DNA from: Mesorhabditis belari
Taxonomy: Eukaryota > Nematoda > Chromadorea > Rhabditida > Rhabditidae
DNA length: 64,000 nucleotides
Direction: 5' to 3'
Assembly: GCA_958450365.1 (NCBI GenBank)
Contig: CAUEEP010000737.1
Location: forward strand, 2,469,501-2,533,500
Program-made: the position numbers and the translations under genes
Notes under the pieces: generated by a model
Database searches by the model: none
Seen by the model: only the letters and a program-made list of their open reading frames with translations
What the model was told of the DNA's origin: nothing
Shown: in pieces, positions 991 to 26,756 of the stretch
Numbering within the stretch: the stretch's first letter is position 1
Layout of the letters: the number at the start of each line of letters is the position of its first letter

Positions 991-1504
991 CTCACTCATT
1001 CAAAATCGGCTACGGAGAATCCCGCCGAGGGATGAATTTTGAATGAAACGTTGTAGGCAATTTTTAAATTAAACACAAATTTGGTAGAAATCGAGGCAGA
1101 ATTGAGTTCTCTACAAAATGATATAATATTTCACTCTACAAAATGATATAAAGGCTTACCAAAAAAAGATTTCATTCAAAATCGTCTACGAGATATTGAT
1201 AGAAGATCTCAAAGCAGTAGCTCAAAGTATAAACTAGTTTTTCTCTTATTTAAAATAGTCTATGTCCTTGTAAACTTTTTCCGAAGGTAGACTCTTTAAA
1301 ATCGGCTACCGTAACCAAATAATTGCGATACACTGGTTTTTGAATAAATTGGCCAACCTCAAAATTAGTTACATTATATCGGAAAAGCTTATGAGAAAAA
1401 TGATATTATGTTTATAGCGAGTAAAAACTCGCACAGTTCGGCGAGCAAACATAAATGGAATTAAGCATCAAAGCTTCACGTCATTTCAAATTTTCGACCT
1501 CTTT

Positions 1505-1601
1505 TGTGCATCCCCTAGTGGGGACGCGTTCCAAAATTTTTTCGAGACACTGTTGGAAGGTCTCGGGGTTAATACTAACCTCAAACTTGGGTAATTAAAC
1601 C
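1505..1601 (-). ncRNA. sls-1: SL1 spliced-leader RNA gene, copy A
   Basis: On the minus strand the RNA starts with the 22-nt SL1 exon (first bases GGTTTAATTACCC, last bases GTTTGAG), followed by a GT donor. Three stems follow in order: a GGTTA/TAACC hairpin just after the donor, a CGAGAC/GTCTCG hairpin, and a 3' stem GTCCCC/GGGGAT. The Sm-binding site AATTTTGGAAC lies before the last stem. A conserved upstream block (CTGGCACACG) is centred about 40 bp before the start. The gene lies 175 bp from a 5S gene and is transcribed away from it, as in the C. elegans 5S/SL1 repeat. The SL RNA donates its exon to the 5' end of mRNAs. Confidence 0.9.
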
Positions 1602-1776
1602 GAAGAGTGAGGTCTCTGTCGCCCTATCCGGACGAGTCGTGTGCCAGGTGCGGCTTTTACCTACGAGACACACGAAAGGTACACACAGTCGTGTCGTCTC
1701 GCGTCTCTGCGAGGGCTGATGCTCTCTTGTTCGCTAGTGGCCGCCTATTTCAGCCATCTCTCACAGCCGCATAATC

Positions 1777-1895
1777 GCTTACGACCATACCACGTTGAAA
1801 ACACGGCATCCCGTCCGATCTGCCAAGTTAAGCAACGTTGGGCTCGGTTAGTACTTGGATCGGAGACGGCTTGGGAATCCCGAGTGCCGTAAGCT
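1777..1895 (+). rRNA. 5S ribosomal RNA, copy 1
   Basis: The 119-nt sequence matches nematode 5S rRNA throughout. It starts GCTTACGACCATACC, has the internal-control segment with GTTAAGCAACGTTGGGC, contains GTACTTGGATCGGAGACGG, and ends GCCGTAAGCT. The two ends pair as helix I. A run of five T follows at once and serves as the Pol III terminator. No disabling change is visible. Confidence 0.95.
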
Positions 1896-2095
1896 TTTTG
1901 CTTTTTCGTGGATCGATCAAGAGACTTGGGAATCAATTTTTTCACAAATTAATAGGATAAATTGCTCTTTGCTTTTTGAATTGTTTCTTTATTCTCGGAG
2001 CTTTACAGTACACAACTTACAAGATCAAAGTGTTAGGTCGAGGGATTCTTTTGGATTAGAGCTTCAGAGAGGATTCAATTGCTGACTATGAGATT

Positions 2096-2194
2096 CGTGG
2101 ATTTCTCAAAAAGGGAAATCCGTTCCAAAATTCCTAGAGACACTGTATGTGGGCCTCGGGGTTAATATCAACCTCTAACTTGCGTAATTGAACC
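2096..2194 (-). ncRNA. Variant spliced-leader RNA, copy V1
   Basis: This minus-strand RNA has the SL1 architecture with a diverged sequence. Its 22-nt leader differs from SL1 at positions 5 (T to C), 12 (C to G) and 19 (T to A). The donor GT follows directly. The first hairpin (GGTTG/TAACC) and second hairpin (GAGGC/GTCTC) are kept with wobble pairs. The Sm site AATTTTGGAAC is intact in the variant, and the last stem is entirely different (GGATTTC/GAAATCC). A second copy lies at 25958-26056. Conservation of structure despite changed sequence suggests it is functional and not a decayed SL1 copy. Confidence 0.75.
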
Positions 2195-2555
2195 GTATTT
2201 GGCGGTCTCTTTCTGGATATCTATCTGCCCCGTGGGCCAGAAGGTGTGCAATTGTGAGATCCCCAAAAGCCCACCTTCCACGTTCACAATTCACCGCCAT
2301 TTCAGCTATAAGTTTCGAAATTCTCCAAAATTCGAAATCAACACTCGAAGTCTTACTCATCTGAAAATAACAAAATGATGCTGGGAATCAATTTTCAGGG
2401 AAGCCGTATTTTTCAAAATTTTCTTCACCATATAGTGAAAGATCTCCGGTGTGATTCCACCGTTTCAATGGAAGCGAGGTGAAGAGTTGATAAATCACGA
2501 TAAAAACGAAACAAAGCATCAAAGCCTCCAATAATTTCACATTCTCAAGTCCATT

Positions 2556-2652
2556 TGTGCATCCCCTAGCGGGGACACGTTCCAAAATTTTTTCGAGACA
2601 CTGTTGGAAGGTCTCGGGGTTAATGCTAACCTCAAACTTGGGTAATTAAACC
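2556..2652 (-). ncRNA. sls-1: SL1 spliced-leader RNA gene, copy B
   Basis: The leader, three stems and Sm site are those of copy A. The last stem reads GTGTCCCC/GGGGATGC, one change from copy A. The upstream element (CTGGCACATGG) ends 47 bp before the start, as in the other copies. The 5S partner downstream is only a 28-bp stub at 2830-2857. Confidence 0.88.
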
Positions 2653-2829
2653 GAAGGGAGAGCTCTCTGTCGCCCTATAGAGACGGGCCATGTGCCAGAT
2701 GCCGCTTTTTCTTACGAAACACACAAGAGGTACACACCCTGGTATCATCTCGCGTCTCTGCGAGGGCTGATGCTCTCTCGTGTTCTCTGGTGACCGCCTA
2801 TTTCAGCCGTCTCTCACAGGCACACACTC

Positions 2830-2857
2830 GCTTACGACCATACCACGTTGAAAACAC
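2830..2857 (+). pseudogene. Truncated 5S rRNA stub
   Basis: Only the first 28 bases of 5S are present, from GCTTACGACC to AAAACAC. The sequence then switches to unrelated DNA (GTGGCGCTTGTATATAC). The same break is found inverted at 25301-25328, so the truncation predates the duplication of the block. Confidence 0.8.
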
Positions 2858-2944
2858 TATGTGGCGCTTGTATATACAAAAAGCTTAATCACACGAGGTA
2901 CAGCTTCAAATTACGATTATACATGAAAATGCTGCATTCTAAAA

Positions 2945-3298
2945 GGTAATCCATAGATTTTAGGCCAATCAAATGTCGGAATGTCTTCACCTTCAGTCAA
3001 ATTCGTTGTCGAAACTTACAAATAATTTTCCCCGATCTTCACAAGGAGCTCAACGATGACGCACAGACATTCAAAGAGATTTGAAACGCTGGTATCATTT
3101 CAAATTTGTTTTAGAAGCTACTCGATAAAGAAGAAACGCGTAAGAGGGCCAATACCTTCGAAAGTTTGTGGATGAAACATGAGAAATGTGTGTGAGTGTT
3201 CAATTTTGATTTGGTTGCTTCTATCATTATTTTCAGGAAACGAAAGTCGGACTTTGAGACGTACTCAGAAGATTACATGTCTCATGATATGGTCGTAA
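2945..3298 (+). pseudogene. Captured fragment of an unknown protein-coding gene, left copy
   Basis: Exon-like sequence on the plus strand reads FPDLHKELNDDAQTFKEI, then a TGA, and further on reads LLDKEE and AFESL-like residues. A GTGAGT donor near 3190 and a TTTTCAG acceptor near 3237 are followed by KRKSDFETYSEDYM. The in-frame stop shows it is not an intact gene. An inverted copy lies at 24870-25205. The parent gene is not in the window and I do not recognise the family. It appears to be a gene piece swept into the 5S/SL1 array. Confidence 0.45.
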
Positions 3299-3474: not shown

Positions 3475-3573
3475 GGTTTAATTACCCAAAGTTTGAGGTT
3501 AGCATTAACCCCGAGACCTACCAACAGTGTCTCGAAAAAATTTTGGAACACGTCCCCGCTGGGGGATGCACAA
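3475..3573 (+). ncRNA. sls-1: SL1 RNA copy C with a one-base insertion in the leader
   Basis: The SL1 RNA stems and Sm site AATTTTGGAAC are present, but the leader has an extra A (ACCCAAAGTTTGAG), making a 23-nt exon. The last stem reads CGTCCCC/GGGGGATG. It lies opposite in direction to copies A and B, at the outer edge of the left block. It is either a pseudogene or a source of rare 23-nt leaders. Confidence 0.7.
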
Positions 3574-3637
3574 AAGAACTCTAAGATTTGAAATGGCTTG
3601 AAGTTTTGATGAATGTCCGAATAATTGCGATTGTTGG

Positions 3638-3698
3638 GGAAAATTCCAAGCCGAACCTAATTCGGAGGTGAAATTAGGTTCGGCTTGGACTTTTCCCA
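3638..3698. repeat. Short hairpin element, family F (short form)
   Basis: Two arms of about 25 bases pair (AATTCCAAGCCGAACC with its complement) around a loop of about 10 bases. The same arms cap the longer hairpin at 46681-46884 in the multicopper oxidase gene, so this is probably a deleted member of one family. Confidence 0.65.
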
Positions 3699-3780
3699 TG
3701 TCTAATGGCAGTGTCTAATGGCAGTGTTTAATGCCAGTGTGTAATGCCAGTGTCTAATGGCTGTGTCTAATGGCAGTTGT
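3698..3780. repeat. Tandem repeat, unit about 13 bp
   Basis: Six imperfect copies of GTCTAATGGCAGT follow directly after the short hairpin. From here to the tRNA at 4561 I see no gene. Confidence 0.8.
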
Positions 3781-24869: not shown

Positions 24870-25205
24870 GGTGAGGCATGTAATCTTCTGAGTACATCTC
24901 AAAGTCCGACTTTCGTTTCCTGAAAATAATGATAGAAGCAATCAAATCAAAATTGAACACTCACAAACATTTCTCACGTTTCATCCGCAAACTTTCGAAG
25001 GTAACGGCCCTCTTAAGCGTTTCTTCTTTATCGAGTAGCTTCGAAAACAAATTTGAAATGATATCAGCGTTTCAAATCTCTTTGAATGTCTGTGCGTCAT
25101 CGTTGAGCTCCTTGTGAAGATCGGGGAAAATTATTTTGCAAGTTTCAACATCCGAATTTGACTGAAGGTGAAGACATTCCGACATTTGATCGGCCTAAAA
25201 TCTAT
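24870..25205 (-). pseudogene. Captured fragment of an unknown gene, right copy
   Basis: This is the inverted counterpart of 2945-3298. The minus strand reads FPDLHKELNDDAQTFKEI and a stop, then ADIISNLFSKLLDKEETLKR, AVTFESLRMKREKC, an intron, and KRKSDFEMYSEDYMPH. It differs from the left copy by a scattering of substitutions. Confidence 0.45.
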
Positions 25206-25300
25206 GGATTACCTTTTAGAATGCAGCATTTTCATGTATAATCGTAATTTGAAGCTGTACCTCGTGTGATTATGCTTTTTGTATATACAAGCACCACAAA

Positions 25301-25328
25301 GTGTTTTCAACATGGTATGGTCGTAAGC
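25301..25328 (-). pseudogene. Truncated 5S rRNA stub, inverted copy
   Basis: The mirror image of the stub at 2830-2857, with the same breakpoint next to ACTTTGTGGTGCTTG. One base differs. Confidence 0.78.
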
Positions 25329-25496
25329 GAGTGTGTGGCTGTGAGAGACGGCTGAAATAGGCGGCCACCAGCGAACACGAGAGAGCATCAGCCCTCGCAG
25401 ACGACACGACTGTGTGTACCTTTCGTGTATCTCATAGGGAAAAGCGGCATCTGGCACATGGCCCGTCTCTATAGGGCGACAGAGACCACAATCTTC

Positions 25497-25594
25497 GGTT
25501 TAATTACCCAAGTTTGAGGTTAGCATTAACCCCGAGACCTTCCAACGGTGTCTCGAAAAAATTTTGGAACGCGTCCCCGCTAGGGGATGCACAA
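25497..25594 (+). ncRNA. sls-1: SL1 spliced-leader RNA gene, copy F
   Basis: Intact leader, stems and Sm site. The upstream element CTGGCACATGG ends at the usual spacing. It is the inverted counterpart of copy B. Confidence 0.9.
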
Positions 25595-25910
25595 ATGAAC
25601 TCTAAGATTTGAAATGGCTTGAAGCTTTGATGCTTAATTCCATTTTTATCGTGATTTATCAATAACTGTGTCAACTCTTCACTTCACTGACGCGGAATCA
25701 CACCGGAGATCTTTCACTATATGGTGAAGAAAATTTTGAAAAATACGGCTTCCCTGAAAATTGATTCCCAGCATCATTTTGTTATTTTCAGATGAGTAAG
25801 ACTTCGAGTGTTGATTTCGAATTTTGGAGAATTTCGAAACTTATAGTTGAAATGGCGGTGAATTGTGAATGTGGGAGGTGGACTTTGGGGGATCCCACAA
25901 TTGCACACCT

Positions 25911-25924
25911 TCTGGCCCACGGGG
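25911..25924 (+). promoter_or_regulatory. Proximal element of the variant SL RNA (V2)
   Basis: TCTGGCCCACGGGG begins 47 bp before the RNA start. The SL1 copies carry TCTGGCACACGGC or TCTGGCACATGG at the same distance (47 bp in copies A, B and H). This position and conservation fit the proximal sequence element of snRNA-type promoters, which recruits SNAPc. Confidence 0.65.
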
Positions 25925-25957
25925 CAGATAGATATCCAGAAAGAAATCGCCAAATAC

Positions 25958-26056
25958 GGTTCAATTACGCAAGTTAGAGGTTGATATTAACCCCAAGGCC
26001 CACATACAGTGTCTCTAGGAATTTTGGAACGGATTTCCCTTTTTGAGAAATCCACG
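25958..26056 (+). ncRNA. Variant spliced-leader RNA, copy V2
   Basis: The leader is identical to V1 (differs from SL1 at positions 5, 12 and 19), with the Sm site AATTTTGGAAC and the same replacement 3' stem GGATTTC/GAAATCC. It differs from V1 by one base in the second stem region (CCCCAAGG for CCCCGAGG). Its promoter element matches those of SL1. Transcribed, it would supply a second type of leader. Confidence 0.75.
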
Positions 26057-26255
26057 AATCCCATAGTCAGCAATTAAATCCTTTCTGAAGCTCTAATCCA
26101 AAAGAATCCCTCGACCTAATACTTTGACTTTGTAAGTTGTGTACTGTAAAGCTCCGAGAATAAAGAAACAATTCAAAAAGCAAAGAGCAATTTATCCTAT
26201 TAATTTGTGAAAAAATGATTTCCAAGTCTCCTGATCGATCCACGAAAATGCAAAA

Positions 26256-26374
26256 AGTTTACGGCACTCGGGATTCCCAAGCCGTCTCCGATCCAAGTAC
26301 TAACCGAGCCCAACGTTGCTTAACTTGGCAGATCGGACGGGATGCCGTGTTTTCAACGTGGTGTGGTCGTAAGC
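26256..26374 (-). rRNA. 5S ribosomal RNA, copy 3
   Basis: Full-length 119-nt 5S on the minus strand with few changes: ACCACACC for ACCATACC near the 5' end, and AAACT for AAGCT at the 3' end, which turns one helix I pair into a mismatch or wobble. It is followed by five T. It is probably functional or recently silenced. Confidence 0.9.
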
Positions 26375-26551
26375 GAGTGTGTGGCTGTGAGAGACGGCTG
26401 AAATAGGCGGCCACCAGCGAACACGAGAGAGCATCAGCCCTCGCAGAGACGCGAGACGACACGACTGTGTGTACCTTTCGTGTGTTTCGTAAGGAAAAGC
26501 GGCATCTGGCACACGGCTCGTCAACATAGCGAGACAGAGAACACACACTTC

Positions 26552-26649
26552 GGTTTAATTACCCAAGTTTGAGGTTAGGATTAACCCCGAGTCCTTGCAA
26601 CAGTGTCTCGAAAAAATTTTTGGAACGCGTCCCTCCAAGGGATGCACAG
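26552..26649 (+). ncRNA. sls-1: SL1 RNA copy G with altered core, probably defective
   Basis: The leader is intact, but the first hairpin reads GGTTAGGATTAACC and the second stem is weakened (CGAGTC/GTCTCG). The Sm site has an inserted T (AATTTTTGGAAC), and the last stem is shortened (GTCCCTCCAAGGGATGC). These combined changes make it the most decayed SL1 copy. Confidence 0.7.
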
Positions 26650-26756
26650 ATGGACTCGAAAATTTGAAATGGGTTAAAGCTTTGATGCTTAATGCTCGAT
26701 TTACCCCGTTAATTTGTGCAAAAATTGTCTCTGGATCGATCCGCAAAAAAGCAAAA

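What the first reader, a model, noticed from the sequence alone, without database searches (positions are those of the whole stretch)
2096..2194. A second, structure-conserved spliced-leader RNA type (two copies)
V1 (2096-2194, minus) and V2 (25958-26056, plus) carry a 22-nt leader that differs from SL1 at positions 5, 12 and 19. The Sm site is unchanged, the first two stems are kept by wobble pairing, and the 3' stem is a new 7-bp helix with no sequence relation to that of SL1. The two copies agree with each other in the leader and in the 3' stem. Random decay would break stems first, so the pattern points to selection on a distinct SL RNA. It may mark a separate set of mRNAs.
Basis: partly seen in the sequence, partly recalled or inferred. 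Interest (0 to 1): 0.85.

Follow-up and report, generated by a model that had tools for sequence, protein, structure and literature searches.

The report
Second class of nematode spliced-leader genes
The two odd RNA genes are recently duplicated, slightly worn members of a larger second family of spliced-leader genes in this roundworm, a variation on a well-known system rather than a new one.

Summary
V1 and V2 are real SL RNA genes: GT donor, Sm site, 3' stem, and an snRNA-like promoter element at -49. They are not a type of their own. They belong to a second class of SL RNA genes ("class A") found across the assembly, whose leader GGTTTAATTACCCAAGTTAGAG differs from SL1 only at position 19. 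Of 34 exact places of GGTTYAATTRCSCAAGTTAGAG, 29 begin a class-A gene; the SL1 leader has 430 places. Promoter plus body, leader left out, separates 30 class-A genes from 60 sampled SL1-type genes, support 100/100. Class A has its own promoter flanks, a 3' stem with paired changes relative to SL1, and often lies beside 5S and SL1. Its leader is its most conserved part. The V-specific changes at 5 and 12 are another matter: V1 and V2 share one duplicated block, stem II loses one pair in V1 and two in V2, and the four-gene V clade varies as much in its leader as in its flanks. Selection for a separate V leader is not supported. Use in mRNA is untested. SL1-type variants are known in other nematodes.

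The parts
2096..2194 (-). V1 SL RNA gene (class A, V clade)
2173..2194 (-). V1 leader GGTTCAATTACGCAAGTTAGAG, followed by GT
2122..2132 (-). V1 Sm site AATTTTGGAAC
2099..2121 (-). V1 3' stem-loop, 7-bp helix GGATTTC/GAAATCC (arms 2121-2115 and 2105-2099)
2230..2243 (-). V1 PSE-like element CTTCTGGCCCACGG, starting at -49
25958..26056 (+). V2 SL RNA gene (class A, V clade)
25958..25979 (+). V2 leader, identical to that of V1
26020..26030 (+). V2 Sm site
26031..26053 (+). V2 3' stem-loop, same 7-bp helix
25909..25922 (+). V2 PSE-like element CTTCTGGCCCACGG
1777..1895 (+). 5S rRNA gene downstream of V1, opposite strand
26256..26374 (-). 5S rRNA gene downstream of V2, opposite strand
1505..1601 (-). 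SL1 gene of the V1 unit (start +593 from V1)
26552..26650 (+). SL1 gene of the V2 unit (start +594 from V2); end approximate
1452..3284 (.). duplicated block holding V1; its inverted partner holds V2
24872..26703 (.). inverted partner block holding V2

Best explanation
This nematode keeps two classes of SL1-type SL RNA genes. Class A is a paralogous branch with leader GGTTTAATTACCCAAGTTAGAG, its own promoter flanks and its own version of the 3' stem; it often sits in a unit 'class A > < 5S SL1 >'. Shown: anatomy, promoter element and its spacing, class split, conservation profile, linkage. Inferred: Pol II/SNAPc transcription, Sm-ring assembly, and donation of a 22-nt SL1-like leader to pre-mRNAs as SL1 does. 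V1 and V2 are two of four genes of a diverged subclade that spread by recent duplication. Their extra leader changes most likely arose by drift under weak or no constraint, so V1 and V2 are at best minor donors.
For: 29 of 34 exact pattern places begin class-A genes. Leader-free tree: 30 against 60, 100/100. Position 19 is A in 28 of 30 and 1 of 60. Class promoter consensus; element at -49 in V1 and SL1 and at -49/-50 in two U2 types and one SL2-like gene. Leader diversity 0.052 against 0.385-0.568 in outer flanks, 22 thinned genes. 3' stem: 3 of 8 aligned pairs changed on both sides between classes and still paired. GT donor in 28 of 30 rows. Drift in V.
Against: No expression data. Covariation within class A does not exceed shuffles. 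Class-A RNAs fold less stably than SL1 (median z -1.68 against -3.05). Some class-A copies look damaged (L032 and L051 lack a GT donor, L037 has a deletion, L021 has an unrelated upstream). Low leader diversity could partly reflect gene conversion and the fact that most members were found by similarity to V1. For drift in V the numbers are small, and the V1-V2 RNA is cleaner than the rest of its block.
Confidence: 0.65

Rival explanations
1. Class A is an ageing family of SL1-derived pseudogenes that multiplies passively with 5S units and gives little or no leader.
For: Weaker folding than SL1, no covariation above shuffles, several visibly damaged copies.
Against: Leader is the most conserved part, then Sm site and 3' stem; conserved class-specific promoter; both-sided changes in the 3' stem between classes.
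Confidence: 0.2
2. One reading: V1 and V2 encode a separately selected SL RNA whose own leader marks a distinct set of mRNAs.
For: Complete anatomy and promoter; leader identical in both copies; RNA 1 of 99 against the rest of the block, binomial p 0.005.
Against: Recent duplication, stem II losses, fold z near zero, leader variation at flank level in the clade, C12 lost, only 2 exact places.
Confidence: 0.08
3. Class A is the operon-resolving SL2-type leader of this species.
For: It is a second class with its own body.
Against: Leader is SL1-like. Separate SL2-like genes exist: GGTTTTAACCCAGTTTACCAAG at C550:3969498 and a 75% relative at C570:1109656, both with a GT donor and an Sm-like site.
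Confidence: 0.04

Closest known systems
Nematode SL1 RNA (C. elegans sls-1; Rfam RF00198)
   Same: 22-nt leader with one class change, GT donor, Sm site AATTTTGGAAC, 3' stem, link to 5S in opposite orientation (C. elegans: passages of PMC11822377)
   Different: Position 19; 3' stem sequence; promoter flanks. V1 gives no RF00198 match at E up to 1, while three SL1 genes of the same stretch do, all below the gathering score
SL1-type leader variants of Pristionchus pacificus
   Same: Several SL1-type leaders encoded by many genes: seven SL1-type leaders, 187 genes, later at least 619 SL1 RNA genes (passages of PMC7986045)
   Different: The leader sequences of that work (Sinha 2014) could not be read, so identity with class A is open
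SL1-like variants of Strongyloides ratti, Meloidogyne javanica and Brugia malayi
   Same: Small changes to SL1 found on mRNAs; a variant used differently from SL1 in M. javanica; variant SL1 genes beside 5S in B. malayi (passages of PMC1657053)
   Different: S. ratti leaders keep GGTTT and CCCA as landmarks (same passages), which V changes at both places; the present genome also has canonical SL1 and SL2-like genes
SL2-like RNA
   Same: SL RNA with PSE, donor and Sm site
   Different: Leader, body and copy number differ

Membership tests
Spliced-leader RNA genes (SL1 type) | 22-nt GGTTTAATTACCCAAGTTTGAG-like leader followed by a GT donor | tested here: met
   V1 and V2: 3 changes, GT present; GT in 28 of 30 class-A rows
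Spliced-leader RNA genes (SL1 type) | Sm site between two stem-loops | tested here: met
   AATTTTGGAAC in V1 and V2; stem II reduced to 5 and 4 of 6 pairs
Spliced-leader RNA genes (SL1 type) | snRNA-type promoter element about 50 nt upstream | tested here: met
   -49 in V1 and SL1; similar at -49/-50 in U2 and one SL2-like gene
Spliced-leader RNA genes (SL1 type) | Stable, conserved secondary structure | tested here: inconclusive
   V z near 0, class A median -1.68, SL1 -3.05; covariation not above shuffles
Rfam SL1 family RF00198 | Score above the gathering cut-off | tested here: not met
   V1 no match at E up to 1; three SL1 genes of the stretch score 35.4, 30.4 and 24.1 bits, cut-off 75
SL2-like RNA | SL2-like leader GGTTTTAACCCAG... 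| tested here: not met
   Class-A and V leaders are SL1-like; SL2-like genes lie elsewhere
Spliced-leader RNA genes (SL1 type) | Leader found on mRNA 5' ends | not testable with these tools
   No RNA-seq; genomic copies outside SL genes were not informative

The most novel reading that the evidence does not exclude
Class A is a regulated second SL1-type snRNP: its own promoter flanks and 3' stem give it a different time of expression or protein partner, so that mRNAs beginning with ...AAGTTAGAG form a distinct set, while the V subclade is a source of new leader sequences.
Probability: 0.2. Interest if true: 0.65.

Novelty: new member of a known kind. Interest (0 to 1): 0.42.

Why it matters
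Two SL1-type classes in one genome that differ by one leader base and by promoter let ordinary 5'-end RNA-seq ask whether SL1-type leaders are interchangeable or sort mRNAs. The linkage of class A, 5S and SL1 also shows how leader variants can arise and persist inside a multicopy unit.

Tried and rejected
Leader copies outside SL genes as a stand-in for RNA-seq. The exact SL1 leader followed by a base other than G has 19 places. Read by eye: 5 have SL RNA-like bodies without a GT donor, 2 are promoter-plus-leader copies without body, 10 belong to two repeat families, 1 (L102) continues into an alpha-tubulin-like coding copy (label recalled, not searched), 1 is unclear. The plain class-A leader lies outside SL genes at 2 places, L053 and L054. 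I reject them as proof of use: family-2 copies share sequence upstream of the leader, so the leader is part of the repeat; L053 and L096 share one flank, and the leader of L096 is interrupted. Other leader variants also occur outside genes, among them G12. The exact V leader was found only in the two genes.

Covariation within class A: not above shuffles; RNAalifold on the same alignment found 9 pairs only. Fold energies do not support V1 and V2.

Species name: one protein search gave no hit; left unnamed. Class-A, V and SL2-like leaders as text: 0 papers in the held library. Sinha 2014 and Wenzel 2020 are not held.

Limits. Of 94 SL RNA rows found in the fetched stretches, 4 were dropped before folding and tree: both rows of L084, and L085 and L106 (degenerate or misassigned by my motif rule; one of the L084 rows is an ordinary SL1 gene lost by that filter). 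The SL1 sample is partial: one search gave loci for 30 of 430 places, the rest came from stretches fetched for class A. Class assignment used the 3' stem, which is also in the tree; the leader is not. flanks left out -500 to -150, where L006 is not alignable, and 350 to 600; the 200-350 part runs into the 5S gene.

Full report
What is there. V1 (2194-2096, minus) and V2 (25958-26056, plus) are as described at sequence level: leader GGTTCAATTACGCAAGTTAGAG, GT donor, Sm site AATTTTGGAAC, 7-bp 3' helix. The window holds eight other SL RNA genes, seven with the exact SL1 leader and one with a one-base insertion in it, and four 5S genes. The window is part of contig C550 of an assembly of 207.6 Mb in 714 contigs. 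SL1 and SL2-like genes point to a nematode, probably of the Rhabditina, to which SL2-like leaders are said to be confined (passages of PMC1657053); I could not name the species.

The two copies are one event. V1 and V2 lie in an inverted duplication of about 1.85 kb, 92% identical. Between them the RNA differs at 1 of 99 sites. The rest of the block differs at 126 of 1712 (binomial p 0.005), but the near flanks at only 19 of 397 (Fisher p 0.066). Their agreement is expected from recent copying, with a hint of constraint at most.

They belong to a larger class. A search with the V1 RNA returned 40 matches, 44 candidates having been found and 40 scored. Most of those read carry the leader GGTTTAATTACCCAAGTTAGAG and a 3' stem like GGATTTCCC..GGGAAGTCC. 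The pattern GGTTYAATTRCSCAAGTTAGAG has 34 exact places and 0 in the reversed-pattern control. Read one by one, 29 begin a class-A gene (24 with the plain class leader, V1 and V2, L005 and L006, and L051), 2 are leader-only copies without body, 2 lie in repeats outside SL genes, and 1 has an SL1-type body. The canonical SL1 leader has 430 exact places, 19 of them followed by a base other than G. Some class-A places look like two haplotypes or copies of one locus (L008 and L011 are identical over the 160 bases compared), so loci are fewer than places.

Class A is separate from SL1. A tree from promoter and body, leader left out, has 26 class-A and 4 V genes on one side and 60 SL1-type genes on the other, support 100/100 (few columns, inner forks poorly resolved, bootstrap not settled). 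Position 19 is A in 28 of the 30 and in 1 of the 60. The promoter consensus shares the core CTGGCACACGG with SL1 but has class-specific flanks; a few members, such as L021, lack it. The element starts at -49 in V1 and SL1; similar sequences start at -49 and -50 upstream of two U2 types and at -50 in one SL2-like gene. In the 3' stem, three of eight pairs aligned from the loop outwards differ on both sides between the class sequences and still pair, which argues that the helix was kept while it changed. A 5S gene lies within the fetched stretch of 24 of 30 class-A genes, in 19 of them at +243 to +336 on the opposite strand. In 17 of 30 an SL1-type gene follows on the same strand at +528 to +723; 16 of these also have the 5S gene between (searches compared).

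Class A looks constrained. Among 22 thinned class-A genes the mean pairwise difference is 0.052 in the leader, 0.141 at the Sm site, 0.177 in the 3' stem, 0.253 in the promoter element, 0.287 in stem II with its loop, and 0.385-0.568 in the outer flanks. Most of these genes were found by similarity to V1, which favours conserved leaders somewhat, and gene conversion may add to it. Against constraint on structure: pair covariation within the class is not above shuffles, and class-A RNAs fold less stably than SL1 RNAs (median z -1.68 in 26 against -3.05 in 51).

The V clade looks relaxed. It has four genes, V1, V2, L005 and L006 (100/99). T5C is shared by the four, A10G is in L005 and L006 only, C12G in V1 and V2 only. 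Across the four, 2 of 22 leader sites vary, 3 of 77 body sites, and 37 of 390 sites in the flanks -150 to -1 and 99 to 350 (sums of rows). Numbers are small, but the leader shows no protection. Stem II keeps 5 of 6 pairs in V1 and 4 of 6 in V2, while hairpin I and the possible leader stem are kept; fold z is about zero. Changes at position 5 or 12 also appear in L031 and in L168 and L169, which have no GT donor.

Mechanism. Shown: gene anatomy, promoter element and spacing, class split, conservation, linkage. [quoted passage not shown] Not shown: expression, use, targets.

Known relatives. Several SL1-type leaders in one nematode are known: P. pacificus has seven SL1-type leaders from 187 genes, and a later count gives at least 619 SL1 RNA genes (passages of PMC7986045). 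SL1-like variants are used in S. ratti, and a variant in M. javanica is used differently from SL1 (passages of PMC1657053). In C. elegans 5S and SL1 genes are paired in opposite orientation (passages of PMC11822377). The class-A, V and SL2-like leaders were not found as text in the held papers; Sinha 2014 is not held, so earlier description of class A cannot be ruled out. V1 itself does not reach the Rfam SL1 model, and the SL1 genes of that stretch match it only below its cut-off.

Noticed in passing
L133, L137, L138 (G000 C679, C698, C683) and others: Head-to-tail copies, about 104 bases apart, of an SL-type promoter plus 20-22 leader bases with no SL RNA body; many end in ..TTTGTG..TTTGCG or ..TTTGGG.
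   Followed up: partly
L092, L093, L095, L101, L103, L114, L130, L149: A repeat family (and a few other coding copies, such as alpha-tubulin-like L102) whose copies begin with an SL1 leader after unrelated flanks, as if copied from trans-spliced transcripts; read by eye only.
   Followed up: partly
L061 (C550:3969498) and L161 (C570:1109656): Two SL2-like genes; the search with the first found no third.
   Followed up: partly
G000 C286: SL1 and U2 genes both recur at about 1,545-base steps, suggesting a tandem unit holding both (positions).
   Followed up: no
window 3475-3575: SL1 gene with a one-base insertion in the leader (CCCAAAG).
   Followed up: no
window 3634-3699: Hairpin with a below-threshold Rfam mir-2363 match on both strands; probably a repeat.
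   Followed up: no
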